Part shown: in pieces, positions 1 to 38,933 of the stretch | How the letters are laid out: every line of letters starts with the position of its first letter | Numbering within the stretch: the stretch's first letter is position 1 | Assembly (NCBI GenBank): GCA_947311565.1 | Contig: CAMZLH010000050.1 | Location: 1 to 39,504, forward strand | DNA from: an uncultured Nitratifractor sp. | Lineage (GTDB): Bacteria; Campylobacterota; Campylobacteria; Campylobacterales; Sulfurovaceae | Direction: 5' to 3' | Length of the DNA stretch: 39,504 nt | Translations under genes and position numbers: made by a program | Notes under the pieces: generated by a model | What the model was told of the DNA's origin: nothing | Database searches by the model: none | Seen by the model: the letters and a program-made list of their open reading frames with translations, nothing else

Positions 1-72
1 CTGATAATATCTTTTTTTAATTTAACTAGTTTCTTAACTCTTATATATTTAATATTCATTAGCTAAGAGTAT

Positions 73-108
73 ATCCATTATATGGATGTTAATTAATATT
101 ATTATAAT
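73..108 (+). promoter_or_regulatory. Possible adhesin promoter region with a palindrome
   Basis: A perfect 15-base palindrome (ATCCAT-TAT-ATGGAT, 73-87) lies just ahead of a TATAAT box at 103-108, about 64 bases before the adhesin ATG. A second -10-like TACAAT is at 120-125. The palindrome could be an operator or simply AT-rich noise. The TATAAT box fits the AT-rich promoters of this phylum, in which a -35 box is often absent. There is no direct evidence which box is used. Confidence 0.3.
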
Positions 109-171
109 AATTATTTAGCTACAATTTATATGTAGTAATACAAACTAAATATAAAATATGAGGAAATTAAT

Positions 172-594
172 ATGAAACAGTTAAACTATTTAAAAGTATA
201 TATAGCAAGTATAATAGTGCTATCAAGTAATTTATTTGCATACCAAGCATCAGACAATAACGATGCAAATGATAATGGTAATGAAAAAAATGTAGCTATT
301 GGTAAAAATGCATATGCAAAAACAAATAGTAATGCATATGGAAGCACGGCAATTGGTAATGATGCCAATGCCACAGGTAATAATGCTTTGGCTATAGGTA
401 GTCAATCCGAAGCAAGTGTATTGCAAGCAACAGCAATAGGTCCAAACGCTAAGGCATTGAATCAAGGAGCAGTAGCAATTGGAGGCAATACTACTGCATC
501 AGGCGTAGGAGCTATGGCATTTGGTGCAACTGCAGAATCTACTGCAAGAGGATCTATAGCTTTAGGAAATGGCTCAATGCAACCGTTGCATTAG
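172..594 (+). CDS. N-terminal fragment of the adhesin: signal peptide and first head repeats
   Basis: The start ATG has AGGA at 161-164, seven bases upstream. Residues 1-23 form a signal peptide (basic MKQLNYLK, hydrophobic IASIIVLSS, cleavage likely after NLFA). From about residue 41 the protein is YadA-type head repeats with the hallmark AIG/AFG/ALG triads about every 14 residues, which fold as a left-handed beta roll in this family. The last ten residues before the stop come from the wrong frame. The fragment ends at 140 residues without stalk or anchor. If made, it would be exported to the periplasm but could not be surface-anchored. Asn66 lies in DANAT, matching the D/E-x-N-x-S/T sequon used by PglB enzymes. 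Confidence 0.75.
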   Translation: MKQLNYLKVYIASIIVLSSNLFAYQASDNNDANDNGNEKNVAIGKNAYAKTNSNAYGSTAIGNDANATGNNALAIGSQSEASVLQATAIGPNAKALNQGAVAIGGNTTASGVGAMAFGATAESTARGSIALGNGSMQPLH

Positions 595-701
595 GGTATG
601 CTGCACAAGCTACAGGTACTAGATCGACATCTCTTGGTTCGGTAAGTGCTGCAACAGCAGATTTTGCTATTTCTATAGGAGATAGATCTAAAGCAACCGC
701 A

Positions 702-2516
702 GTGTCGGCAATAGCTCTAGGAGAGCAAGCCTCTGCAACTGGGGTATACTCACAAGCATTGGGATACAAAGCAGATAGTTCAGGGGAGTATTCACAAGCA
801 TACGGAATAAGAGCAAACAGTGATGGAGAGTCATCTGCAGCTATAGGAATGGATGCTAATGCAAGTGGATTTGGGTCTCAGGCATACGGCATCGAAGCTC
901 AAGCATCTAATGAGTATACTCAAGCATTTGGGTACGAAGCAAACAGTGCAGGGAAAAATGCTCAAGCATTTGGATACCAAGCAAACAGTTCAGGAGATTA
1001 TTCACAAGCATATGGGATAAGAGCTCAGAGCGGGGGTGCGTCCTCAGTAGCTATAGGGATAGATGCTAACTCTGCAGGGGATAATGCTTTGGCATTGGGT
1101 TCTAATTCATCTGCCGAAGCTGAAAATTCAGTTGCTTTAGGCTCTAATTCTGTAGCTGATGAAGCGGATACTGTTTCGGTAGGCAGTGTGGACGCAGAGA
1201 GACGTATTACAAATGTGGCAGATGGTACAGCTGCGACGAATGCTGTGAATGTATCTCAAACATCTCGTATAGATAGTGTTTCATTAGATGCAGATAATCA
1301 TACTGTAAATATTATAGAAAAAGATATTTTGGGCAATGCGGTTGTTTCTGATAATAGTTTGGATCTTTCTGCTTTGGAGACTACGCAATCTTTGCAGAAT
1401 AAGGCGGACATTGCAACAAATAAAACAGATATCAATACGAATAAGACAGACATTGCAACAAATAAAACGGATATCAATACCAATAAGAGTGATATTGCTA
1501 CTAACAAGACAAATATTGATAATATTAAATCAGACATCAATACAGCTACAACAGATATAGCAACAAATAAGAGTGACATTGCTACAAATAAGAGTAATAT
1601 TGCATCAAATAAAAATGAGATTGCAGCCAATGCAAATAGTATTACAACAAATTCAGAATTAGCATTAACAGGAAATCAATTAAATATCCAAGAAACACAT
1701 GCCGATGGTACTAAAGCATCTGATTTAACAGTAGATCTATCTTCTATAGAGACAAATTTAGGAAAACAAAATAGAGATGATATTGCTACAAATAAGGATA
1801 ATATCAGTAGTAACACTGAAAAAATTATGGCACAAAATTTAATAGTATCTGGTTACGATGAAAGAATTAGTAGCAATACAAGAGGTATAGCTCTAAACTC
1901 TTCTAGAATTTCAGCTAATAGTAGGCGTATCTCTGTGGTAGAAGATAAAATAAAGTATATCGATGTAGATGAAAACAATATTGCTGTAGGTAGAGGTGCA
2001 GTTGCATCTCCCACACAAGCAGTTGCAGTAGGTACAAATGCTCGTGTTGGCAAAGGTGCTACTGGATCTGTTGCAATAGGCTCTAATACGGTAATAAAAA
2101 ATAGTGTAAAAAGCTCTGTAGCTTTAGGCCAGCACTCTGTTGCATCAGAAGACAATACTGTATCTGTTGGTAATGATAAACTTAAAAGACGTATTACTAA
2201 TGTAGCTGATGGTATTAATGATTACGATGCTGTAAATATGAGACAGTATCACTTCTTAGATAAGAAAATAGATACATTAGATAGAAAAGTAAGTGGCACA
2301 CAAGCTATGACAACTGCAATATCCGCATTAGTACCAAACGCAAGATCAGGTAAAAATACCCAATTAAGTTTAGGAGTAGGTAAATATAAAGATGCTACTG
2401 CTATAGCTGTAGGAGCATTTCACTATGTAAATAATAACTTACTATTTAATGCTGCTATCTCTCATGAAAAAGAGGCTGGTACAGCTATACGTGCAGGTGT
2501 AACTTGGGGATTTTAA
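702..2516 (+). CDS. C-terminal fragment of the adhesin: head, neck, stalk, second head, anchor
   Basis: Positions 702-704 are a GTG with no convincing ribosome-binding site, and the frame is open upstream to about 573, so this is the continuation of the adhesin rather than an independent gene. In order it carries more head repeats with SQAYG, TQAFG and SVAIG triads, then a YadA neck (DTVSVGS, RRITNVADGTAATNAVNV; about 1170-1260) and a stalk of heptads such as DIATNKT (1407-1658). The heptads resume at about 1782-1960, a second short head follows at about 1975-2150, then a second RRITNVADG neck at about 2160-2245. The last 85 or so residues are a YadA anchor: a helix entering the pore, then four amphipathic strands ending GVTWGF. 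In the known family the anchor trimerises as a 12-stranded barrel in the outer membrane. Confidence 0.8.
   Translation: MSAIALGEQASATGVYSQALGYKADSSGEYSQAYGIRANSDGESSAAIGMDANASGFGSQAYGIEAQASNEYTQAFGYEANSAGKNAQAFGYQANSSGDYSQAYGIRAQSGGASSVAIGIDANSAGDNALALGSNSSAEAENSVALGSNSVADEADTVSVGSVDAERRITNVADGTAATNAVNVSQTSRIDSVSLDADNHTVNIIEKDILGNAVVSDNSLDLSALETTQSLQNKADIATNKTDINTNKTDIATNKTDINTNKSDIATNKTNIDNIKSDINTATTDIATNKSDIATNKSNIASNKNEIAANANSITTNSELALTGNQLNIQETHADGTKASDLTVDLSSIETNLGKQNRDDIATNKDNISSNTEKIMAQNLIVSGYDERISSNTRGIALNSSRISANSRRISVVEDKIKYIDVDENNIAVGRGAVASPTQAVAVGTNARVGKGATGSVAIGSNTVIKNSVKSSVALGQHSVASEDNTVSVGNDKLKRRITNVADGINDYDAVNMRQYHFLDKKIDTLDRKVSGTQAMTTAISALVPNARSGKNTQLSLGVGKYKDATAIAVGAFHYVNNNLLFNAAISHEKEAGTAIRAGVTWGF
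762..1078 (+). repeat. Duplicated 70-residue block of head repeats
   Basis: Bases from 762 (GYKADSSGEYSQAYGIRA) and from 972 (GYQANSSGDYSQAYGIRA) encode nearly the same sequence. The offset is exactly 210 bases, that is five 14-residue head repeats. The similarity runs on through SSAAIGMDANASG / SSVAIGIDANSAG. This points to internal duplication of a five-repeat unit, a usual way for these adhesins to change head length. Confidence 0.65.
1407..1658 (+). repeat. Twelve 21-base coiled-coil heptad repeats of the adhesin stalk
   Basis: Twelve consecutive 7-residue units follow one another, mostly DIATNKT, DINTNKT or DIATNKS. Ile is at core position a in every unit and Asn at core position d in most of them. 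This is the Asn-at-d pattern known from trimeric autotransporter stalks, where the three Asn side chains hold an anion in the core. At DNA level the units are 21-base near-repeats such as gacattgcaacaaataaaac, so the tract could change length by slippage or recombination. Confidence 0.75.
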
Positions 2517-2561: not shown

Positions 2562-2587
2562 AAAATATTGCAACTTGCAATATTTTT
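2562..2587 (+). terminator. Rho-independent terminator after the adhesin
   Basis: An 11-base perfect stem (aaaatattgca / tgcaatatttt) with a three-base loop (2573-2575) ends in a run of five T at 2583-2587, 46 bases after the adhesin stop codon. The A-rich left arm means it could also act on the minus strand, ending recQ transcription. Nothing else convincing is seen between 2588 and 2693. Confidence 0.75.
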
Positions 2588-15551: not shown

Positions 15552-16619
15552 ATGTCAATTTTAGATATTTTTTTTATTAATAGACCAAAAAACTCTATAT
15601 TTTATAATCGAAAACTTGAACTACCTAGTAGTGGCTCCTTTAATCTATATGGAGCTAGAGGTGTTGGCAAGAGTGCTTTAATTGTTGATTGGTTAAAAGA
15701 GTTAGATAAAAATAGTTATCTATATATTGATGCTGAGGATCCAAAATTTATCTTAGATGATATTGATATTATTGAGCTAAATAGTTTTATTAAAGAGGAG
15801 TCCATTAAAACATTAATTATTGACCACTACTTTGATGGTTTTTTAGAGGATGTACCTACTGTTGATAGATATATTATTGTATCAAGATATAGAATCGATA
15901 TAGTCAATAGACACTATAAGCTACTCCCCTTAGATTTTGAAGAGTTTTTTAGTTTCTCTAAATTTAACTCTATAGAGACAGCTTTTAGTAAATTTACAAA
16001 ACATGGAACTCTGCCATCAATAGTTGTTTCAGGTATTAACTCTTTTGCTTCTAGAGAGTATTTTTTTGAAAAGTTTGAACCCCAAATAGGAAAAGTAGTT
16101 TTAATACTATCTATGTATCAATGTCAAATTGCTACTAATAACCAGATATATAAGAGAGCTAAAGATTATTTTAGAATATCTAAAGATCAAATATATAATA
16201 CAATAAAAGAGTTGATTGATGAGGAGGTAGTATATACTATAGAGAATTATGAAAAGGGTTTTGGTAAGAAAATTATTCTTTATGATTTTGCAATAGCAAA
16301 ATATCTAAATGGTTCACTTAATTATCAGTTAATATTTGACTCTATTATTGCTGTTGCATTATTAAAACACAATATCAAGATAAAAGCTATTAGCAAACCA
16401 TATGGTTATGTTACAGATAAGAGCGAACTAATATTAGTATCACCACTAGAAGAGGAGGAGGAGTTGTGGACTAAAATACAGAAAAACTTTAGTATTTATA
16501 GTAAATTAAGACCAATAAAAGTCACTATAATTACCAACTCAAGTAGCTACTCATTTAATATTAACAAAATAGAGTTTACTGCCCTGCCTTTTTATGAGTG
16601 GGTTACTGGATTAAATTAA
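15552..16619 (+). CDS. AAA-type ATP-binding protein of unknown role (AAA_14/DUF4143-like)
   Basis: The 355-residue protein has a P-loop GARGVGKS (residues 34-41) and a Walker-B-like LIIDHYFD (about 88-95), followed by a sensor-like YIIVSRYR strand and LLPLDFEEFFSF. That last stretch resembles the L-xPL-xF-EF pattern of archaeal/bacterial AAA_14 ATPases that carry a C-terminal DUF4143 nuclease-like domain. Residues 170-240 look like a winged helix (YKRAKDYFRISKDQIYNTIK). The C-terminal part is alpha/beta and unassigned. Function is unknown; such ATPases have no established reaction. It is divergent from the S10 operon and its tail overlaps that of the next gene by 17 bases in convergent orientation. 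Confidence 0.8.
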   Translation: MSILDIFFINRPKNSIFYNRKLELPSSGSFNLYGARGVGKSALIVDWLKELDKNSYLYIDAEDPKFILDDIDIIELNSFIKEESIKTLIIDHYFDGFLEDVPTVDRYIIVSRYRIDIVNRHYKLLPLDFEEFFSFSKFNSIETAFSKFTKHGTLPSIVVSGINSFASREYFFEKFEPQIGKVVLILSMYQCQIATNNQIYKRAKDYFRISKDQIYNTIKELIDEEVVYTIENYEKGFGKKIILYDFAIAKYLNGSLNYQLIFDSIIAVALLKHNIKIKAISKPYGYVTDKSELILVSPLEEEEELWTKIQKNFSIYSKLRPIKVTIITNSSSYSFNINKIEFTALPFYEWVTGLN

Positions 16620-28351: not shown

Positions 28352-29194
28352 ATGGATAAGAGGAGGCTAACCCCAACAGATATAGTTGTATATAAAGAGA
28401 TAGGCAAGGATGAGATAGATTTTAAAGAAATAATTAAAGTTATATATAGCTATAAAAGATTTATATCTCTATTTTTTGTCGTCTCTTTATTGTTAGCTCT
28501 GCTATATCTATTTATTACTAAACCAATATATAGGGTAGATGCACAGATAGAGTTAGGTTCATATATTAAATATAATAATAACATTCAAAAGAGAGTTTTT
28601 TTTACAAAACCAGATAAGATAATAGATATAGTTAAGTATAAGTTTGATCGTAAAATAGATAACAGATCAATATATCCAAAGATAGAGATAGTCCAAAGTA
28701 GTGGTTTGTTAAGCATAAGTGTAGAAGATTATAGTAACCAAGGTGCATTAAATTACCTAAAAGAGATTATTAATTTTATCAAGAGTAAAGAGTTAGTTAG
28801 TATATTAGCATATAAAAAATTTCTTAAAAAAGAGTTATATATATTAGATGATACTGAAAAAGAGTATAAAGGAAATCTGAAAAAATTATATAAGAGGCTA
28901 AATAGCCCACTAAATAGTAAAATAGAAGAGAGTATAATATTTCAAATATCAGAATATAATAAATTAATCAGTAGTATAAAATTGGATAAAAATAGATATC
29001 AATATATACTTTCAGTCATAACTGAGGTAAACTTTACTAATGAGATAAAAAAGAGTACCAAACCCATTAAACCTAAGTACAATTTAATACTATTAATAGC
29101 TTCTATAGCTAGTATTCTTAGTGCCATTTTTATAGTTTTTCTAATTGAATTTATAAAAGAGGGTAGTGATAAATTAGTTTTAAAAGGTAACTAA
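28352..29194 (+). CDS. Wzz-like chain-length determinant protein
   Basis: The 280-residue protein has the Wzz topology: an N-terminal transmembrane segment (about 37-55), a long helical periplasmic region with coiled-coil character, and a second segment (about 244-267) preceded by the Pro-rich KPIKPKYN typical of these co-polymerases. No tyrosine-kinase domain is present, so it is the simple Wzz type. It would set the length of the polymer made by the EpsG/Wzy-like protein downstream. No clear ribosome-binding site precedes its ATG; it may be translated by readthrough coupling from metK. Its stop overlaps the flippase start by one base. Confidence 0.75.
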   Translation: MDKRRLTPTDIVVYKEIGKDEIDFKEIIKVIYSYKRFISLFFVVSLLLALLYLFITKPIYRVDAQIELGSYIKYNNNIQKRVFFTKPDKIIDIVKYKFDRKIDNRSIYPKIEIVQSSGLLSISVEDYSNQGALNYLKEIINFIKSKELVSILAYKKFLKKELYILDDTEKEYKGNLKKLYKRLNSPLNSKIEESIIFQISEYNKLISSIKLDKNRYQYILSVITEVNFTNEIKKSTKPIKPKYNLILLIASIASILSAIFIVFLIEFIKEGSDKLVLKGN

Positions 29195-30687
29195 TGCTTC
29201 GTAAAAATTTATTGATAAATATATTTATAACTTTATCTATAGGTATATTATCTTTTATTATTAATAAAGTTTTTGCAGATATATTAGGTAAAGAAGCACT
29301 AGGGCTTATGAGTTTGATGACTCAACTTATATCATATTTAAATTTAGTAGATATGGGTATAACAACAGCTGCAACATATGCATTATATAAGCCTCTTTCT
29401 AATAGTAACTACAAAGAGTCTAGTATAATTATATCTACTATAGATAGTTATTTTAAAGTCATATCTATAATTATTATTTTATTTGGTTCTATAATTGCTC
29501 TAGTTTTACCTTATATTGCAAATAGTAGTACTTTTGGCAATATAATCTATATTTATTGGGGTTTATATCTATTAAATACTGCATGGTCTTATCTAAATGC
29601 AAAATATAGTATTTTATTTATAGCTAATCAAGAGTATGGATATATGCGATTAATATCTGGAAGTTCAAGAATATTAGCAATGATTTTACAACTTATAGCA
29701 TTAATATATTTTAAATCTTTTTTACTTTTTATAGCAGTTTTAAGTTTGCAAAATATAATAAACTATATCTTTTTTAAATTTAAATTAATAAAAGATTATC
29801 AGTGGTTTGTTAATACAAAAGATAGATATAGTCAAATAAAAATAGATATGAAGAATATGTTCTGGCATAAAATTGGAGAGGTAGTTGTTTTTAGTACAGA
29901 CTATATAATTATATCTATCTATTTATCATTAAAGATAGTTGCAGTGTATGCAACATATATGATTATATATAGTATGATATCAACAGTAGTTAATATTATT
30001 ACTCCTGTACTGGCACCATATACAGGTAATTTCATAGCCAAGAAGAGTTTAGATAGTAGCTATAAACTTTGGCAAAAGTTTCACTCATTGTATGTATTTA
30101 TAGCAACTTTCGTTGTAACTATCTCTTACTTTACAATTAACACTTTTGTAGAACTTTGGATGGGGAAAGAGTACATCTTGTCTAACAATATAGTAATTTT
30201 AATTCTAATTAACTTATATATAGGTATATCAAGAGGTGCTTTAGAGACATTTAAAAATAATACAGGAGTATATAGTGATATTTATAATCCAATACTAGAG
30301 AGTACAATTAATTTGCTATTATCTTTGATACTAGTTAACTATATTGGTTTAGCAGGTGTAGTTGTGGGTACAGTAGTATCTAATTTAATAGTTATCTATA
30401 TACTAAAACCTCTTGTAGTTTTTAAAAAATCATTTCAAAAGCCTATGAAACAGTATATATTAGAATACTCAAAATATACTGTTTTAACACTTTTATCTAT
30501 ATACTTTTCAACTACTATATTAAGATATATACCTACAAATATAGATAGCTGGAGTCTATTTATAATATATTTTGGTAAAGTTACATTTGTATCTTTTGTT
30601 ATAACTTTAATAGTATTTTTAATAGATAATAACTTTAAAGTATTTTTAAGTAGTTTAATTAAAAAGGCTATAAAAAATTATGATTAA
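29194..30687 (+). CDS. Wzx-like lipid-linked oligosaccharide flippase
   Basis: This protein of 497 residues has about 12-14 hydrophobic segments and the pattern of MATE/MOP exporters: GKEALGLMSLMTQLISYLNL near the start (compare LGxxxyGl in Wzx), a charged middle loop with MFWHKIGEVVVFSTDYIIIS, and a second half with GLAGVVVGTVVSNLIV. It would flip an undecaprenyl-linked repeat unit to the periplasmic side. In C. jejuni N-glycosylation that step is done by the ABC protein PglK, which is not found here. One-base TAATG overlap with the Wzz-like gene and eight-base overlap with the next. Confidence 0.82.
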   Translation: MLRKNLLINIFITLSIGILSFIINKVFADILGKEALGLMSLMTQLISYLNLVDMGITTAATYALYKPLSNSNYKESSIIISTIDSYFKVISIIIILFGSIIALVLPYIANSSTFGNIIYIYWGLYLLNTAWSYLNAKYSILFIANQEYGYMRLISGSSRILAMILQLIALIYFKSFLLFIAVLSLQNIINYIFFKFKLIKDYQWFVNTKDRYSQIKIDMKNMFWHKIGEVVVFSTDYIIISIYLSLKIVAVYATYMIIYSMISTVVNIITPVLAPYTGNFIAKKSLDSSYKLWQKFHSLYVFIATFVVTISYFTINTFVELWMGKEYILSNNIVILILINLYIGISRGALETFKNNTGVYSDIYNPILESTINLLLSLILVNYIGLAGVVVGTVVSNLIVIYILKPLVVFKKSFQKPMKQYILEYSKYTVLTLLSIYFSTTILRYIPTNIDSWSLFIIYFGKVTFVSFVITLIVFLIDNNFKVFLSSLIKKAIKNYD

Positions 30688-31684
30688 AGTAAGTATAATA
30701 ATACCGGCATATAATGCAGAGAAATATATATTTAGATCACTACATAGTGCTTTAAATCAGACTTTACAAGATTTAGAAGTAGTTGTTGTAAATGATGGTT
30801 CAACCGATAGAACTAAAGCTATAGTGGAAGATATAGCGACTAAATATAGCAGAGTTAAAGTTTTAAATATAGAAAATTCTGGTGTATCAAATGCTAGGAA
30901 TATAGGTATTAATAACTCACAAGGTAAGTATATACAGTTTTTAGATAGTGACGATTGGATAGAGCCTAGTATGTCATTAGATATGTATAATTTTGCAGTT
31001 AATAAAAAGTGTGATATAGTAGTTTCAAATTTATATAGAGATGATGACTTAGGAAATTTGGAAATTTGGAAAGATTTAAAAACAGATATCTATCTATACT
31101 CTAAAGATGATTATTTAAAAGAACTTTTTAATAATCGGGCTTATCACTCTGTGTGGAATAAGATATATAAAAAAGAGATATTTAATGATATCTCTTTTCC
31201 AAAGAATATATCTCTAGGTGAAGATTTAGTTATGATGGTAGATATATCTTTAAATGCAGATAATATAGGTAAAATAGATAAAGCTTATTATCACTATATT
31301 ATAAATCCAAATAGTATAACAGAAGATGGTAAATCTAAAAAATTTTATCAACTATTTGATGCATATAGTATTATAGAAGATAGATTACATAAAGCCAAAA
31401 AACATAGTAAATATTACAGAAGTTTTAGTAGTAAAAAGTTTAATGATTTTAGTGCATTTATACACCAAAAGCCATATTATCATGATGATGGATATATTAA
31501 AAGCTTTAATCAATTTATAGAGTATTTACATAGTAAACCAAAGATAGAAAATAGTTCTAACAAATTAAAACAGATATTAATGAGATACTTGATCTCTTTT
31601 CCATATATTCTAAATGTCAAGATTATAATTAGTACAATTACAAGTTTAAAAAAATTTAAACATATGTTTAGAGATGGAGTATAA
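30680..31684 (+). CDS. Family 2 glycosyltransferase
   Basis: This is a GT-A fold enzyme of 334 residues. VSIIIPAYNAEKYIFRSLHS at the N terminus, VVNDGSTDRT (37-45) and the nucleotide-sugar/metal motif DSDD (89-92) followed by WIEP are classic GT2. GEDLVMMVD near residue 190 is the ED acceptor motif. No transmembrane segment is seen, so it should act at the cytoplasmic face on a lipid-linked acceptor. The donor sugar is unknown. Confidence 0.9.
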   Translation: MIKVSIIIPAYNAEKYIFRSLHSALNQTLQDLEVVVVNDGSTDRTKAIVEDIATKYSRVKVLNIENSGVSNARNIGINNSQGKYIQFLDSDDWIEPSMSLDMYNFAVNKKCDIVVSNLYRDDDLGNLEIWKDLKTDIYLYSKDDYLKELFNNRAYHSVWNKIYKKEIFNDISFPKNISLGEDLVMMVDISLNADNIGKIDKAYYHYIINPNSITEDGKSKKFYQLFDAYSIIEDRLHKAKKHSKYYRSFSSKKFNDFSAFIHQKPYYHDDGYIKSFNQFIEYLHSKPKIENSSNKLKQILMRYLISFPYILNVKIIISTITSLKKFKHMFRDGV

Positions 31685-32744
31685 ATTGAAAAAAAGATTA
31701 CTAAATATAACAGGCTCTTTAGGTGGAGGTATAAATAGTGTTGTTAATAGTATATCTAAGGAGTTAAGTAGTATATATAGTATTGATTTTTATATATTAA
31801 GAAAAACAGAGCACATTTCAATACTAGGGTGGCTTAAAAGATTTATTACTATTAAAAAAATTATGCAAAATCAAGATCTTATACACTATCATGGTGGCTG
31901 GCTAATGGCTCTAGCACTACTTTATAAAAAGCCAAAAGCTTCATTAGTTATCTCCCCTCATGGTGCATTAGATAGGGTTTCACTAAAAAAGAGTAGGTAT
32001 AAAAAATTATTTGTAAAATATATCTATATGAAAAGAGCCTACTTAAATGCTAATATTATACACGCACTCACTGATAAAGAGGCAGCAGATATAAGGGCTT
32101 GGGGCATAGATACACCTATAGAGATAATTCCAAATGGCATAGACTTTAAAGATAAACTAGATATTAATTTAGAGCTAAAGAGAAGGCTAAAAGATTTATC
32201 AAAAGATAGGAGAGTATTTTTATCTCTTTCAAGAGTTCATAAAGCAAAAGGTATAGAGATACTTATAGATGCTTTTTCTTTAGTAGATAGTAGAGAGTTT
32301 TGTCTATTTATTGTTGGAGAAGGAAGCAAAGAGTATATATCTTTTTTAGAGCATAAAATTAAAAAATTATCACTTGATAATAGTATATTCTTATTAGGTC
32401 CACTTTATAATGAAGATAAAAATAGTGTTTATGAAATATCAGATATATTTATACTATCATCTTTTAATGAAGGATTTCCATTAACAGTTTTAGAAGCATA
32501 TAGGCAGAAAAAAGCTGTAATAACTACAACAGCAACTCCCTTTAAGTGGATAGTAGAAAATGAGAGTGGATGGTATATAAAACCAACAAAGAGTGAGTTA
32601 AAAAGAGTATTAGAAGAGGCTTTATTAAAAGATTTAGGTGAGTTATCAACTATGGGAAGCAATGGATTTAACTATAGTTTAAAGAATTATAATTTAAATA
32701 CTATTACAAAAAGATATAATTTAATGTATAGTAAATTAATTTAA
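31674..32744 (+). CDS. Family 4 glycosyltransferase (GT-B)
   Basis: This is a GT-B fold enzyme of 356 residues. The N-terminal domain has the glycine-rich GSLGGGINSV loop and SPHGALDRVSL. The C-terminal GT1-type domain has FLSLSRVHKAKGIEILIDAF and the E-x7-E motif in SSFNEGFPLTVLEAY that holds the nucleotide sugar. Two starts are possible: the ATG at 31674 (11-base overlap with the GT2 gene) or a TTG at 31686 that has GGAG six bases upstream. The latter is at least as likely and would remove four residues. Confidence 0.88.
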   Translation: MEYKLKKRLLNITGSLGGGINSVVNSISKELSSIYSIDFYILRKTEHISILGWLKRFITIKKIMQNQDLIHYHGGWLMALALLYKKPKASLVISPHGALDRVSLKKSRYKKLFVKYIYMKRAYLNANIIHALTDKEAADIRAWGIDTPIEIIPNGIDFKDKLDINLELKRRLKDLSKDRRVFLSLSRVHKAKGIEILIDAFSLVDSREFCLFIVGEGSKEYISFLEHKIKKLSLDNSIFLLGPLYNEDKNSVYEISDIFILSSFNEGFPLTVLEAYRQKKAVITTTATPFKWIVENESGWYIKPTKSELKRVLEEALLKDLGELSTMGSNGFNYSLKNYNLNTITKRYNLMYSKLI

Positions 32745-32756
32745 GAGGTATATATA

Positions 32757-33848
32757 TTGAGTAGCTATATATTTTATACATCTATACTGATTTTTTCTAC
32801 ACTAAGTGCATATTTATATGAGAAGAGCCTAGATTATAAAAGATATATATTCTATTTTTTTGCTTTTTTTATACCTTTTATTTTTATAGCAATTAGATTG
32901 AATATGGGTACAGATTATAGTAGTTACGTAGATATCTTTAATGAGATATCAAATGGAAAAGATTTAAGAATAGAGTATGGGTATACCCTATTAAATAAAT
33001 TAGTGCAGATTGTTGGGTTAAATGTTCAATGGGTATTTGCAATAATGGGATTTTTTACTATATATTACTCTTATAGAAGTTTGCCTAAAGATGCTTTTAC
33101 AATAGGAGTATTTTTATTTATAACTATATACTATTTTCAAGGTAGCTATAATCAAATACGACAAGGATTAGCAGTTGCAATTATGTCGTATGCATTTAAG
33201 TATATTTATGAAAAAAATATACTTAAATATATTTTATACTCTGTAGTATCTTCTCTGTTTCATTTTCCTACAGCTATGATTCTATTTTTTATATATTTTA
33301 TAGGAAATATACGATTGAATAGATTTGTTATGATAGCTATTGTAGTAGTTGTATTTGTAGCCGTAGAGCAACATTTAATAGCAGACTACTTAAAATTATT
33401 TATGAGTATATTCCCTTCAGACTATATAGACTATCTTGATGGAAAGTTTGGCTCATCTAACTATAGTAGATATGGAATGTTAATGCCTTTTTTACAAAGC
33501 CTATTATCTATAATAGTATTTTATAATAAAGATAGAGTAACTGCTATATACCCACAAGCTAATATTTTAATTAACCTATATCTACTTTACGAACTCTTTT
33601 ATTTGTTGCACTTTGAGATAACAATATTTAACAGATTACAATATATGTTTGTATTTGCTTTTATAATATCTTTACTATACTTTATTCTATCATTTAATAG
33701 CAGAAGAAGAGTAATAGTTCTCTATATATTATCCTTGAGCTACTTTTTAATATTTCTTAGATTTATACATAATGGTAGCACTACAAAGGTAGATAGTACA
33801 CATATTAATCCATATAAAAATATTATTTTTGATAAAGGAGATCAATGA
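32757..33848 (+). CDS. EpsG-family polysaccharide polymerase (Wzy-like)
   Basis: This is a polytopic membrane protein of 363 residues with about ten segments. FIAIRLNMGTDYSSYVDIF and GSYNQIRQGLAVAIM, with HFPTAMILFFIYF after, match the EpsG group, which polymerises or extends lipid-linked repeat units and functionally replaces Wzy. It starts at TTG (32757), with GAGG upstream. With a Wzz-like protein and flippase in the same operon it suggests that the glycan is polymeric. Other EpsG members act in exopolysaccharide synthesis. Confidence 0.8.
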   Translation: MSSYIFYTSILIFSTLSAYLYEKSLDYKRYIFYFFAFFIPFIFIAIRLNMGTDYSSYVDIFNEISNGKDLRIEYGYTLLNKLVQIVGLNVQWVFAIMGFFTIYYSYRSLPKDAFTIGVFLFITIYYFQGSYNQIRQGLAVAIMSYAFKYIYEKNILKYILYSVVSSLFHFPTAMILFFIYFIGNIRLNRFVMIAIVVVVFVAVEQHLIADYLKLFMSIFPSDYIDYLDGKFGSSNYSRYGMLMPFLQSLLSIIVFYNKDRVTAIYPQANILINLYLLYELFYLLHFEITIFNRLQYMFVFAFIISLLYFILSFNSRRRVIVLYILSLSYFLIFLRFIHNGSTTKVDSTHINPYKNIIFDKGDQ

Positions 33849-34876
33849 ATTATAAAGTAGATTTTGTATTGCCATGGGTAGATAGTAGCGATAGGGAGTG
33901 GCAAAAAGAGAAGGAGCAGTATAATCTAATAGAAGATAATGACATTAACTCTAACTCTAGATATAGAGATATGGGGACATTGAAATATGTTTTAAGAGGT
34001 ATAGAAAAAAACTGTCCATGGTATAATAAAATATATATCATAACTACAGGACACTACCCCAAGTGGCTTGATATAGATCATAAAAAAATTGTTTTAGTTA
34101 AACATGAAGATATATATTTTGATAAATCTCATCTACCTACATTTAACTCCAACTCTATAGAGATGAATATTTTAAATATTCAAGAGTTAAGTGATAAGTT
34201 TATATACTTAAATGATGATATGATAATACTTAGAGAAGTTACGAAAGATAGATTCTTTAAAAATAGTAAACCTATTGATTTTTTTTCTCATAGTTGGATT
34301 AAAAGAGGTAAACTATTTGAAAAGATTAGAGGTAGAGATAGTTGGATACACTCTTTGAATAATAATATAGAACATATAAATAAAAGCTACTATCCTTACA
34401 AAGTAGATAGAGAGAAACTTTTTCATAAAAGTTATCCGACAAGAGTAATAATTGCAAATTTTTTACTAAAATATATATATAAAAAAATATTTTGGCTAGA
34501 GCACTGGCACCACCCTCAACCATATTTAAAAAATACACTTAAAGAAGCATATAAAAATTTTCATAATGATATGCTACAGTGCTCTAAAAATAGATTTAGA
34601 TCAAATAGTGATTTGACTCCATATCTATATAGATATATCCATTTAGTAAAAGGTGATTTTGAGCCATACTATAATAATGACTCTATTGTCTCTAACTTAA
34701 ATAGTATTGATATATTATACAGTTTGATAGAAAAAATTGATAGTAATATAGATATAAAATTTGCATGTTTTAATGATTCTACTAATTTAATAGATGATGA
34801 GTATGATATAATCACTGAGAAGTTAAATCATTTTTTAGATAAATATCTTCCCGAAAAAGCCTCTTTTGAGCTATAG
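33845..34876 (+). CDS. Stealth-family sugar-phosphate transferase
   Basis: Stealth proteins transfer hexose-1-phosphate to make phosphodiester-linked polysaccharides such as meningococcal capsules, and resemble the animal GlcNAc-1-phosphotransferase. Conserved region 1 is VDFVLPWVDSSD (residues 5-16). Conserved region 2 covers RYRDMGTLKYVLRGIEKN through KIYIITTGHYPKWLD and DKFIYLNDDMIIL (39-129). The region with HWHHPQPYLK and FHNDMLQCSKNRFRSNSDLT corresponds to the later conserved blocks. It has 343 residues. The gene shares four bases with the polymerase gene. It predicts a phosphate bridge in the glycan. Confidence 0.88.
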   Translation: MNYKVDFVLPWVDSSDREWQKEKEQYNLIEDNDINSNSRYRDMGTLKYVLRGIEKNCPWYNKIYIITTGHYPKWLDIDHKKIVLVKHEDIYFDKSHLPTFNSNSIEMNILNIQELSDKFIYLNDDMIILREVTKDRFFKNSKPIDFFSHSWIKRGKLFEKIRGRDSWIHSLNNNIEHINKSYYPYKVDREKLFHKSYPTRVIIANFLLKYIYKKIFWLEHWHHPQPYLKNTLKEAYKNFHNDMLQCSKNRFRSNSDLTPYLYRYIHLVKGDFEPYYNNDSIVSNLNSIDILYSLIEKIDSNIDIKFACFNDSTNLIDDEYDIITEKLNHFLDKYLPEKASFEL

Positions 34877-34884
34877 GAGTTTGT

Positions 34885-35694
34885 ATGAAGTTTTCAGTTT
34901 TAATCTCTATTTATTATAAAGAGAGAGCATCCTATTTTAATAGATGTATGCAGAGTATTTGGGATGAGCAGAGTATAAAACCAAATGAGATAGTATTAGT
35001 AGAAGATGGAGAGTTAACTTTAGAGCTTTATGACTTAATAGATAAGTGGGAACAGAAGTTAAATGGTATATTAATTCGTTTACAATTAGATACAAATGTA
35101 GGACTTGGAGATGCTTTAAATATTGGACTACACTCGTGTAACTTTGAGTTAATAGCACGAATGGATAGTGATGATATAGCTAGGAGAGATAGGTTTGAAA
35201 AACAACTAAAAATATTACAAAACGGCGTTGATATTTGTAGCTCTTGGGTAAGTGAATTTGATATTGACGAAAGAGAGATAATATCATATAGGAGAGTTCC
35301 AGAACTTCATAAAGATATTCTAATATTTTCAAAGAGTAGAAATCCACTAAATCACCCAGCAGTTATGTATAAAAAGAGTAAAGTTTTAGATGCTGGTGGA
35401 TATAAAAAGATGTTATGGTTTGAAGATTACTATCTATGGATAAGAGTATTATTAAGTGGTGCGAAGTTTTATAATATACAAGAGCCACTTGTTAATATGC
35501 GTTCAGGCTTTGCTCAGCTTGAAAGAAGAAGTGGTTTAAGCTATGCAAAAGCTGAATTTAAGTTTCAAAAAGAACTTTTAAATTTAGAATTTATTACTGT
35601 TTTTAGGTTTATAAAAAACCTGTTAGTTCGATTAATTGTAAGAATATCACCAAAAAAAGCTGTTAAAATAGTGTATAAATTAATTAGACGATAA
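34885..35694 (+). CDS. Family 2 glycosyltransferase (AmsE-like)
   Basis: This is a 269-residue GT-A enzyme with FSVLISIYYKERASYFNRCM, EIVLVEDGELT and the motif ARMDSDDIARRDRFEKQ (DSDD at 94-97). LNHPAVMYKKS and WFEDYYLWIRVL complete the pattern seen in AmsE-type capsule and exopolysaccharide transferases. It is the last gene before the small gap 35695-35748, which contains a hairpin and a new promoter. Confidence 0.9.
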   Translation: MKFSVLISIYYKERASYFNRCMQSIWDEQSIKPNEIVLVEDGELTLELYDLIDKWEQKLNGILIRLQLDTNVGLGDALNIGLHSCNFELIARMDSDDIARRDRFEKQLKILQNGVDICSSWVSEFDIDEREIISYRRVPELHKDILIFSKSRNPLNHPAVMYKKSKVLDAGGYKKMLWFEDYYLWIRVLLSGAKFYNIQEPLVNMRSGFAQLERRSGLSYAKAEFKFQKELLNLEFITVFRFIKNLLVRLIVRISPKKAVKIVYKLIRR

Positions 35695-35723
35695 TATAAA
35701 ACCTTTTATTAATAAGTTTTATA
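35695..35723 (+). terminator. Hairpin between the GT2 and initiating transferase genes
   Basis: TATAAAAC (35695-35702) pairs with GTTTTATA (35716-35723) around a 13-base loop, directly after the stop codon of the upstream gene. It is AT-rich and has no long T run. It may give partial termination, or only separate the two transcription units. Confidence 0.35.
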
Positions 35724-35724
35724 C

Positions 35725-35730
35725 TATAAT
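35725..35730 (+). promoter_or_regulatory. -10 box for the initiating transferase and pglB
   Basis: TATAAT (context tactataatttct) lies 24 bases before the ATG at 35749. It could give the last two genes of the locus their own transcription. Confidence 0.45.
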
Positions 35731-35748
35731 TTCTATAAAAAGAGTAAA

Positions 35749-36750
35749 ATGTTATACTTTATACTTGCATTTACAATATCTATAGTAATATCGCTATTTA
35801 TTATTTACTATAGTCATAAACATGAAATATTTATAGACTGCAATGAGAGTGATAAACCACAAAGATTTCATGAAGTTGCAACACCTAGATCTGGTGGTAT
35901 TGGTATAATAGGAGGCTTTATACTCTTACTCTTTTCTGTATTTGGCATAAAGCTACTAATTCCTACAATTTTAGCTTTCATATCTGGAATATTTGAAGAT
36001 TTTAACAACTCGTTAAGTGCAAGAACTAGATTAATACTACAAGCTATTGCAGCAGTATTTGGCATATATCTATTAAATGCAATAATATTATATCTAGGGC
36101 TAGGAATACACCTTCCCCTGTGGTTTGGATATCTATTTACAATTTTTGTCATAGTAGGCTTAATGAACGCTATTAATATTATAGATGGATTTAATGGATT
36201 AGCAAGTGGTATTACAATAGTTATAATTATATCTTTTGGATACATTGCATATATACAAGATAATCAAGAGTTATTAAAAGTTATATATATAGTACTTGGT
36301 TCAATATTTGGATTTTTTCTCTTAGTATTTCCTAAGGGCAAGATATTTCTTGGAGATGGTGGCGCATATCTACTTGGTTTTATTGTAGCTATTGTAGGAA
36401 TTTTCTTAGCAAATAAATATAGTAGCGTTAGCCCTTGGTATGTTTTAGCAGTGCTAATATATCCTGTTTGGGAGGTAGCATTTTCTATAGTTAGAAAGCT
36501 ATCTATAGGATTATCTCCTCTAGAACCAGATGGCTACCATTTACATATGTTAGTCTACAAACATCTAGTTAAAAGTAATCCTATGGCATCACTATTTATT
36601 GTAGTTTTAACAATACCTTTTACGCTCTATGCTACTATACATGCACACAACTCTTTTTTAAATATAAAGATTTCTATCGCTTTTATAGTAACATATACAT
36701 TGTTATATCTATACCTTTATAAGAAAAGTAAATTGGAGGAGACAAAATGA
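35749..36750 (+). CDS. WecA/MraY-type undecaprenyl-phosphate glycosyl-1-phosphate transferase
   Basis: This polytopic enzyme (333 residues, about ten segments) starts glycan synthesis by putting a sugar-1-phosphate on undecaprenyl phosphate. The family landmarks are KPQRFHEVATPRSGGIGI (residues 36-53), FEDFNNSLSARTRL (82-95, the acidic pair), NAINIIDGFNGL (140-151), FLGDGGAYLLG (200-210) and the C-terminal cytoplasmic His loop DGYHLHMLVYK (261-271). It is not the small monotopic PglC used by C. jejuni. The WbpL/WecA group is therefore the better comparison. It overlaps pglB by four bases. Confidence 0.9.
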   Translation: MLYFILAFTISIVISLFIIYYSHKHEIFIDCNESDKPQRFHEVATPRSGGIGIIGGFILLLFSVFGIKLLIPTILAFISGIFEDFNNSLSARTRLILQAIAAVFGIYLLNAIILYLGLGIHLPLWFGYLFTIFVIVGLMNAINIIDGFNGLASGITIVIIISFGYIAYIQDNQELLKVIYIVLGSIFGFFLLVFPKGKIFLGDGGAYLLGFIVAIVGIFLANKYSSVSPWYVLAVLIYPVWEVAFSIVRKLSIGLSPLEPDGYHLHMLVYKHLVKSNPMASLFIVVLTIPFTLYATIHAHNSFLNIKISIAFIVTYTLLYLYLYKKSKLEETK

Positions 36751-38933
36751 AAAAGGCAAGTCTATTAATTATAATAGCTTTTATATTCTCAATATTTTTA
36801 AGATTTAACTATGTCGATACGATACAATCTAAATCAGAATTTAAATATAATGGCGAATATATTATAAATACTAATGATGGCTATACTTTTGCAAAAGGTG
36901 CAAAAGAGATAGCTAGTGGAGAGTACAAAGATAGAGAAGAGCGAGCAAAGTTTGATAATATAGCACTCGATGAGGGTATATCAAAAGTAACTGCTTTAAT
37001 TGTTAAAATAACAAATATAAAAGCAGAGAGTGTTATATTCTACATAAGTGCAATATTTAGCTCTTTAGTGGTTATACCTGTTATATTGATAGGCTGGAGT
37101 ATTGGCTCTTTAGAGGTTGGTTTCATAGCTGCACTTTTAAGCTCTATAGCATGGAGCTACTACAATAGAACAATGCTTGGTTACTATGATACAGATATGT
37201 TAAATATAGTCTTTCCATCTCTTCTACTATGGAGTTTAATAGGTGCAATAAAGAGTAAAAAAAGTATATACTTAATAATTACTTCTATAGAGATTATTGC
37301 ATACAGGTGGTGGTACCCAGCTAGCTACTCAATAGATTTTAGTTTAATAGCAATGGTTGGTATATATTTGGCTACTGTACAATATTTCAAAAAAGATTAC
37401 TTAGTTGATTTAAAAAACTCTTTAAGTAGTAGTTCATTAAATAGAGTAACCTCTTTCTATTTAGCATTAGTAGCTTTTATGCTTATAGGTATTAATAACC
37501 TGCCAGATATAGCAAGAGTATCTATTGCTGTAGTACTCTATGCGATATACCTTAAAAATAAAGATATATTTAAAAAGTATATATGGTATATTTTAGGCAT
37601 TGCAATTGTTATGTTCTTGGCTACTGGTGGGCTTGATCCAATTATTAGTAAATTAAACTACTATGTATTCAAGAGTGATATTACAAAGGTAGGAGATAGT
37701 TTAAATTTACACTTTTTTAATGTTGCAAAAACAATTAGTGAAGCTGGAGCTATTCCATTTAATACTGTTGCAAATAGAATTAGTGGAAATATGGTAATAT
37801 TTATTCTCTCTATAGTTGGCTTTATTGCACTCTTAGTTAAACATAGATACCTTATTTTAGCTCTACCGCTAATTATTCTAGGAGTTATATCATACAGTAG
37901 TGGTTTGCGCTTTACAATATATGCTGTAGTTCCTTTAGCACTAGGAGTAGCATATTTAATTGTTTATGTATCAAAATATATATCTAACAATTACATAAAA
38001 GGTAGAGAGATATATTTTATATCACTATCTCTTTTAACTATGGCTATCTTATACCCAAATATAAAACATATAATACAATACGACAAGCGTATTAGACCAG
38101 TTTTTATTAAAAGTGAAATAGATGCTTTAGATAAAATTAAAAATAAAATGGATAAGAAAGATTATATAGTTGCTTGGTGGGACTATGGTTATCCACTAAA
38201 ATTTTATAGCAGATTAAACACATTGACAGATGGTGCTATACATAATGGTGCAGTTAATTTTCCTGTTAGCTACTCGCTAATTGAACCACAAAATAGAAGT
38301 GCTAAAATGGCTAGGTTAAGTGTTGAGTATCATGAAAAACGTTTCTTATTACCTAATAGCGATAAAGATAAAAATAGAACCGATATAGAATATATGATTT
38401 TAGATAACGGCTATAAAAGTGCTAATAAATTCTTAAACGATATTGATACTATTAAGTTACCAAAGAAAACTCGTGATGTCTACCTATATCTTCCAGAGAG
38501 AATGTTAAGAATATTCCCGGTAGTAAATAAATTTAGTGATTTAAATATTGAGAATGGAGAGAGCTATAATAGTGGATTCTTTTTAAGTTACTCTAACTAT
38601 AAAATAGCTAATAACAATATATATCTACCATATAATAATCGAATTGATGTTAAAAAAGGTATTTTAATATACAATAACAAATCTATAAAAATTAATAAGT
38701 TAATAGTTACAAACTATAAAAATGGCAAGTTCGCTAAGAGAGCTAATATATTTGATATAACTTCTAAAATTAATGTAATATATGTAAAGAGTAGTAGAAG
38801 AGTTATAATACTAGACGATAAAATGTTAAACTCAACATATATTCAGCTATTCCTACTTGAAAATTATGAAAAAGATCTATATGAGCCAGTAATATTAACT
38901 CCATTAGTAAAGATATTTAAATTAAAAATTTAA
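36747..38933 (+). CDS. pglB: PglB-type oligosaccharyltransferase (STT3 family)
   Basis: PglB transfers a lipid-linked glycan to Asn in the periplasm. The 728 residues comprise about 13 N-terminal membrane segments and a periplasmic C-terminal domain. Metal-binding acidic residues are Asp44 (NTNDGY) and Asp148/Asp150 (GYYDTDM); the external-loop-5 motif TISE is at 329-332 and Arg344 (NRISG) lies 12 residues after that Glu. In the C. lari and C. jejuni enzymes the same spacing holds the Arg that requires Asp/Glu at position -2 of the sequon. WWDYG is at 477-481 and the bacterial MI motif is MLRI (586-589). All catalytic features are intact. Confidence 0.95.
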   Translation: MKKASLLIIIAFIFSIFLRFNYVDTIQSKSEFKYNGEYIINTNDGYTFAKGAKEIASGEYKDREERAKFDNIALDEGISKVTALIVKITNIKAESVIFYISAIFSSLVVIPVILIGWSIGSLEVGFIAALLSSIAWSYYNRTMLGYYDTDMLNIVFPSLLLWSLIGAIKSKKSIYLIITSIEIIAYRWWYPASYSIDFSLIAMVGIYLATVQYFKKDYLVDLKNSLSSSSLNRVTSFYLALVAFMLIGINNLPDIARVSIAVVLYAIYLKNKDIFKKYIWYILGIAIVMFLATGGLDPIISKLNYYVFKSDITKVGDSLNLHFFNVAKTISEAGAIPFNTVANRISGNMVIFILSIVGFIALLVKHRYLILALPLIILGVISYSSGLRFTIYAVVPLALGVAYLIVYVSKYISNNYIKGREIYFISLSLLTMAILYPNIKHIIQYDKRIRPVFIKSEIDALDKIKNKMDKKDYIVAWWDYGYPLKFYSRLNTLTDGAIHNGAVNFPVSYSLIEPQNRSAKMARLSVEYHEKRFLLPNSDKDKNRTDIEYMILDNGYKSANKFLNDIDTIKLPKKTRDVYLYLPERMLRIFPVVNKFSDLNIENGESYNSGFFLSYSNYKIANNNIYLPYNNRIDVKKGILIYNNKSIKINKLIVTNYKNGKFAKRANIFDITSKINVIYVKSSRRVIILDDKMLNSTYIQLFLLENYEKDLYEPVILTPLVKIFKLKI

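What the first reader, a model, noticed from the sequence alone, without database searches (positions are those of the whole stretch)
571..594. Single-base frameshift splits a trimeric autotransporter adhesin
The head-repeat pattern continues without a break if reading slips back one base near 575-576, giving GNGSNATVALG. The second frame is then free of stops to 2516. Similar places in the gene read ggctctaat, here ggctcaat, so one T appears to be lost. It may be a switched-off surface adhesin, a strain polymorphism, or a sequencing error. There is no homopolymer or short repeat at the site, so ordinary slipped-strand phase variation is not supported.
Basis: seen in the sequence. Interest (0 to 1): 0.65.

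Follow-up and report, generated by a model that had tools for sequence, protein, structure and literature searches.

The report
Broken surface-adhesin gene, deletion in head
A gene for a hair-like bacterial surface adhesin is cut in two reading frames by a small loss of DNA in its repetitive head region, most likely a recent switch-off of one strain's adhesin and of a kind already known from other bacteria.

Summary
ORF 172-594 (signal peptide, YadA-head repeats) ends out of frame inside a head repeat. The same protein continues in frame 3, open to 2516, with head, stalk and YadA anchor. Codon statistics flip from frame 1 to frame 3 at the same place.

Head units here and in relatives are almost strictly 14 residues (42 nt). 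The junction unit is 29 nt, 13 short; no 10-residue unit occurs among 103 spacings from 9 other genomes. Either about 13 nt went in one event, or a smaller lesion hit an already short unit; a repeat-profile test does not decide.

No homopolymer, slippery heptamer or credible internal start was found. The genome also holds an IS-cut copy of the adhesin's 5' end and an orphan anchor. Best reading: recent loss of function in a dispensable trimeric autotransporter; assembly error is not excluded. Similar frameshifted TAAs are published. Interest is low.

The parts
1..206 (+). Leader (upstream region and first codons), duplicated at G000:C39:1857-2062 (-) at 97% identity; the window is contig C50 and starts at its base 1
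160..166 (+). Shine-Dalgarno-like GAGGAAA upstream of ATG 172
   Evidence: read; upstream stretch printed
172..594 (+). 5' piece of the adhesin gene, frame 1, 140 aa: signal peptide (by eye, residues 1-23) and YadA-head repeats; ends at TAG 592-594
556..584 (+). Head unit holding the lesion: 29 nt instead of 42, 13 nt short of the repeat register
576..592 (+). Perfect 8-bp inverted repeat with a 1-nt loop, starting exactly where frame 3 takes over
576..2516 (+). 3' piece of the adhesin gene, frame 3: head, coiled-coil stalk, second short head, neck/stalk, YadA anchor; no usable start of its own found
1397..1625 (+). 21/42-nt tandem repeats of the coiled-coil stalk (NKTDI/NKSDI)
2334..2513 (+). 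YadA-like membrane anchor (PF03895, 55 bits)
2562..2586 (+). 12-bp perfect palindrome followed by T-rich sequence, likely the adhesin gene's transcription terminator (inferred)

Best explanation
The locus is a trimeric autotransporter adhesin (type Vc secretion, YadA-like) gene inactivated by an out-of-frame loss of DNA in one repeat of its head; the net shortfall against the repeat register is 13 nt. Translation would start at 172 and give a 140-residue secreted head fragment. It would lack stalk and anchor and so could not trimerise in or cross the outer membrane. The 3' piece lacks a signal peptide and a credible start, so no surface adhesin is made (inferred). The 3' frame is still stop-free, so the loss is recent or is an assembly artefact. 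A hairpin at the palindrome on the junction is a plausible but unproven trigger. The adhesin is a patchy accessory gene in its family, and other copies in this genome are also decayed. Shown: the two frames, the domains, the register shortfall, the palindrome, the remnants. Inferred: loss of function, recency, mechanism.
For: Domains on both pieces and a frame flip in codon statistics at the junction. Strict 14-residue register with a single misfit at the junction (14-residue layers are also described for TAA heads in PMC9543794, passages). Intact single-frame relatives in G001 (705 aa) and G008 (744 aa). No slippery heptamer and no well-placed Shine-Dalgarno start for frame 3. Eight conserved window genes have near full-length NCBIfam matches, so the contig is not generally error-ridden (RecQ, Map, SecY, S8, L2, YifB, GlnRS-YqeY, AcsA). 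Decayed copies in the same genome: a 5' leader cut after about 12 codons by an rve-type IS on C39, and a 66-residue orphan anchor on C66. Patchy family: YadA_head in 9 of 175 family genomes.
Against: There are no reads and no sibling strain; the junction lies only about 575 bases from a contig end, in a gene whose first 206 window bases are repeated elsewhere. The 3' frame of 646 codons has no stop; at 3.75% stops per random substitution this allows up to 78 neutral substitutions at 95%, so it does not prove decay. A frame-3 product by rare slippage cannot be excluded.
Confidence: 0.62

Rival explanations
1. Assembly or sequencing artefact: the strain has an intact gene and the assembler or consensus dropped part of a repeat unit near the contig end or at the hairpin.
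For: Draft of 73 contigs; junction near the contig end; leader repeated on C39; hairpin at the junction; the gene is made of similar 42-nt units; downstream frame untouched. The relative G009's adhesin also breaks at contig ends inside its repeats.
Against: Eight conserved genes checked in the window are near full length. The head units here differ in DNA, and the nearest 42-nt tandem array is at 921-1015, so a collapse should remove whole units, not 13 nt.
Confidence: 0.25
2. Loss of one base in a head layer that was already four residues short. This competes with the single 13-nt loss inside the best explanation, not with inactivation itself.
For: Profile score 12.5 bits for a 1-nt gap at 573-578 plus a 12-nt in-frame gap at 584/585, against 7.3 for one 13-nt gap. 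Natural indels in TAA heads are reported at the layer boundary (PMC9543794, passages), where the 12-nt gap would fall.
Against: No 10-residue layer in 103 spacings from 9 other genomes or 23 of this gene's own. The two-gap model has far more placements to choose from, and it needs two lesions in one unit.
Confidence: 0.3
3. Programmed ribosomal frameshifting or other recoding makes the full protein at low level.
For: Both frames overlap openly between about 453 and 591 (frame 3 open for 687 codons), and a hairpin lies right after the junction.
Against: No X XXY YYZ heptamer in 455-591. The hairpin region folds little better than shuffles (z -1.25). The head register would still be 10 residues. 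Relatives do not share the two-frame layout.
Confidence: 0.03
4. Reversible phase variation of the adhesin.
For: Reversible frameshifts in mononucleotide repeats are proposed to switch the Bartonella TAA badE (PMC11466379, passages). This gene has an A7 run at 284-290 and a T7 run at 12-18 upstream.
Against: The lesion is not in a repeat tract: no run of 4 or more in 541-610 and no direct repeat flanking it closely. The A7 run reads in frame.
Confidence: 0.05

Closest known systems
Trimeric autotransporter adhesins, YadA/BpaC/SadA type (type Vc secretion)
   Same: 14-residue YadA-head layers, coiled-coil stalk, neck/stalk motif, 60-residue YadA anchor; closest solved chains BpaC 7o23 (E 8e-27), 2yo0, YadA head 1p9h and YadA anchor 2lme
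   Different: The gene is split over two frames inside a head layer; host appears to be a Campylobacterota (Sulfurovaceae-like) bacterium, inferred from nearest RecQ records
Bartonella henselae badA with strain-specific frameshifts and neighbouring badA pseudogenes (PMC8859334, passages)
   Same: TAA silenced by a frameshift in some isolates, one of them with the stop in the head domain, with TAA pseudogenes elsewhere in the genome
   Different: Here the remnants lie on other contigs, and no sibling isolates are held to show on/off variation
Bartonella badE contingency locus (PMC11466379, passages)
   Same: Frameshift early in a TAA gene removes the adhesin
   Different: badE changes through 9-base mononucleotide repeats; none lies at this junction
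Quasipalindrome-associated template-switch mutations (PMC7202029, PMC3820800: titles and start of abstracts only)
   Same: Small lesion at a perfect short palindrome without a homopolymer
   Different: No ancestral sequence is held, so whether the palindrome arose in the event is unknown

Membership tests
Trimeric autotransporter adhesin (type Vc) | YadA-like C-terminal membrane anchor | tested here: met
   PF03895 at 2334-2513, 55 bits, cut-off 22.7
Trimeric autotransporter adhesin (type Vc) | YadA-head repeats and stalk | tested here: met
   PF05658 in both pieces, PF05662 in the 3' piece
Trimeric autotransporter adhesin (type Vc) | One open frame from signal peptide to anchor | tested here: not met
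   Frame 1 stops at 594; head, stalk and anchor continue in frame 3. So it is a broken member, not a functional one
Trimeric autotransporter adhesin (type Vc) | Signal peptide | tested here: inconclusive
   N terminus MKQLNYLKVYIASIIVLSSNLFA read by eye; no predictor run
Trimeric autotransporter adhesin (type Vc) | Trimer on the cell surface, adhesion | not testable with these tools
   needs protein work
Phase-variable contingency locus | Repeat tract at the frame break | tested here: not met
   No run of 4 or more at 541-610; no tandem repeat there
Programmed -1 frameshift | Slippery heptamer in the overlap | tested here: not met
   Scan of 455-591 found none
Quasipalindrome template-switch mutation | Inverted repeat at the lesion | tested here: met
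   Perfect 8-bp arms, 1-nt loop, 576-592; but 254 of 2000 synonymous shuffles also give one
Quasipalindrome template-switch mutation | Ancestor had an imperfect repeat that the mutation perfected | not testable with these tools
   no sibling sequence held

The most novel reading that the evidence does not exclude
The palindrome on the junction is the product of a hairpin-templated (template-switch) event that rewrote part of one head layer. Such events, with IS cutting of a near-identical second leader (C39), would be a recurrent route by which this lineage turns its adhesins off and on without simple-sequence repeats.
Probability: 0.06. Interest if true: 0.5.

Novelty: new member of a known kind. 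Interest (0 to 1): 0.2.

Why it matters
It is a case of adhesin loss in an environmental Campylobacterota lineage where YadA-type heads are rare (9 of 175 family genomes). It also shows that the repeat register can tell how much is missing, where a frame check alone suggests a single base. If real, it means surface attachment by this adhesin is dispensable in the sequenced strain. It does not open a new mechanism.

Tried and rejected
Searching for named relatives of the adhesin in genome contigs found none. RecQ-centred loci gave named relatives (80 loci kept of 156), but none of the RecQ loci I searched, apart from the window's own, carries the adhesin or valS by tblastn, so they give no orthologous site. 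I first thought the contig start marked a de Bruijn node shared with C39 (62 identical bases). I dropped this because the contig ends that do overlap share other lengths, most clearly 129 bases (84 ends examined of 146: all 73 starts, 11 far ends). Programmed frameshifting, internal start and slipped-strand variation were tested and rejected. I expected the repeat profile to favour one 13-nt gap; it did not. The palindrome looked striking (five distinct ones in 39.5 kb) but weakened under a synonymous-shuffle control, 254 of 2000. The IS copy at the end of C41 is not in an adhesin context. Papers on Sulfurovum with 'trimeric autotransporter' (1 paper) or 'YadA' (18 papers, 8 listed) showed nothing on point in the listings; I opened none of them. 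A listing on Illumina sequence-specific errors was not followed up.

Full report
What is there. The window is contig C50 of a 1.69 Mb draft genome in 73 contigs, estimated 99.99% complete, window GC 31%. Its gene content (PglB, GlnRS-YqeY, ribosomal genes) and the named records nearest to its RecQ (MAGs labelled Campylobacteraceae, Nitratifractor sp. and Sulfurovum sp.) point to a Sulfurovaceae-like Campylobacterota; this placement is inferred. At the left end, ATG 172 opens a frame that runs to TAG 592-594 and codes for a signal-peptide-like N terminus and YadA-head repeats. From 576 the same repeat pattern continues in frame 3, which is open to TAA 2514-2516 and codes for head, coiled-coil stalk, a second short head, neck/stalk and a YadA anchor. 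Codon log-odds learned from 17 other window genes favour frame 1 in windows starting up to 487, are mixed at 532, and favour frame 3 from 577 on.

How much is missing. TAA heads are built of 14-residue layers (PMC9543794, passages seen, which also mentions rare loop insertions or deletions and 15-residue layers in UspA1). In this gene the layers are spaced 18, then 14 five times, then the junction, then 14 fourteen times; G001, G008 and G009 show 18, 14 six times, 20, 14 four times. A profile-based count over adhesins of 9 other genomes gave 103 spacings of up to 24 residues, 72 of them 14 and none 10. This count ignored candidates closer than 9 residues, spacings over 24, and the G009 3' piece. 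A cruder regex count had sub-motif spacings of 4 to 11, also none of 10. Reading across the junction by slipping one base would give a spacing of 10. In DNA the junction unit (556 to 584) is 29 nt against 42, so 13 nt are missing from the register. Against my own preference, the position profile scores a 1-nt gap near 573-578 plus a 12-nt in-frame gap at 584/585 at 12.5 bits and the best single 13-nt gap at 7.3 bits. The two-gap model has many more placements, so I call this undecided.

A palindrome at the junction. AATGCAAC-C-GTTGCATT (576-592) is a perfect inverted repeat with a one-base loop and begins exactly where frame 3 takes over. Only five distinct perfect repeats with arms of 8 or more and loops of 4 or fewer occur in the 39.5 kb window, and by the script's count it is the only one with at least three G/C per arm. 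Hairpin-linked template switching is a known source of small lesions at such sites (PMC7202029, PMC3820800; listing and start of abstracts only). But when the gene's codons were shuffled among synonyms with the residues kept, 254 of 2000 shuffles also put such a repeat over the junction, so the support is modest. The same feature could also promote a sequencing or assembly error (inference).

Can the gene still work? No X XXY YYZ heptamer lies in 455-591, and no frame-3 start codon up to 1392 has more than 4 of 6 Shine-Dalgarno matches (those with 4 are TTG and GTG codons at 1089 or later, beyond most of the first head), while the real start has GAGGAAA. The RNA after the junction folds little better than shuffles (z -1.25). 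There is no homopolymer of 4 or more at 541-610; the longest runs near the gene are T7 at 12-18 and A7 at 284-290, away from the lesion. So recoding, internal initiation and slipped-strand switching are not supported. The 3' frame has no stop in 646 codons; with 3.75% of random substitutions creating one, up to 78 neutral substitutions (4%) are allowed at 95%. The lesion is thus recent, or not real.

Surroundings. The first 206 bases have a 97% copy on C39 (200 of 206; first 62 identical). There the leader lies downstream of valS and the coding part ends after about 12 codons at an rve-type insertion sequence; no adhesin follows on the fetched far side, and no target duplication is visible at its ends. 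A partial copy of that IS ends contig C41, outside any adhesin context. C66 holds a lone 66-residue YadA anchor (49 bits), 58% identical to this one. So one frame-broken gene and two remnants were found, and no intact adhesin, in searches of the own genome. In the family, YadA_head occurs in 9 of 175 genomes, and in the genus 4 of 12 match the 5' piece. Among the 9, G043's adhesin also carries a stop inside its head: an in-frame TGA at G043:C7:11241 with head, stalk and anchor continuing after it. G009's is divided between two contig ends; G001, G008, G114, G126, G134 and G153 show long open frames. The gene is patchy and seems easily lost.

Comparison with the literature. In Bartonella henselae two of eight isolates lack BadA because of frameshifts, one with the stop in the head, and badA pseudogenes flank the gene (PMC8859334, abstract and passages). 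In B. krasnovii badE, frameshifts in 9-base mononucleotide repeats arise under host passage (PMC11466379, passages). In Brucella melitensis a TAA locus is reduced by deletions including single-base ones (PMC7688925, passages). A TAA gene broken by a small deletion is therefore a known kind of event. I found no paper on such an adhesin in Sulfurovum by the searches (listings only).

Verdict. A real two-frame split of a trimeric autotransporter adhesin gene. The most likely cause is a recent out-of-frame loss in one head layer, net 13 nt against the register, leaving a non-functional gene. An artefact of a draft contig end is the main rival and needs reads. Interest is low: an ordinary kind of gene decay, with a small unexplained palindrome.

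Noticed in passing
window 1-206; G000:C39:1857-2062 (-) (L041): Adhesin leader duplicated downstream of valS, cut after about 12 codons by an rve-type IS without visible target duplication; second locus or strain allele unknown.
   Followed up: partly
G000:C66:3340-3537 (L020 1501-1698): Orphan 66-residue YadA anchor without head or stalk, next to other truncated genes (amino-acid permease-like and aconitase/leuC-like fragments, by eye).
   Followed up: partly
L252 1742-1744 (G043:C7:11241): A family relative's adhesin has an in-frame TGA in its head, with 578 open codons after it: a second head-broken adhesin in the family.
   Followed up: partly
window 2562-2586: 12-bp perfect palindrome with T-rich tail after the adhesin's stop, a likely terminator.
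   Followed up: no
window 28352-38933: Polysaccharide/glycosylation cluster: glycosyltransferases, a Stealth-family protein (33845-34876), WecA-like transferase and PglB-like oligosaccharyltransferase.
   Followed up: no
window 15552-16619: AAA_14 ATPase-like protein lying between the ribosomal gene cluster and YifB; similar-looking ATPase proteins occur several times on C66 (L042, by eye).
   Followed up: no
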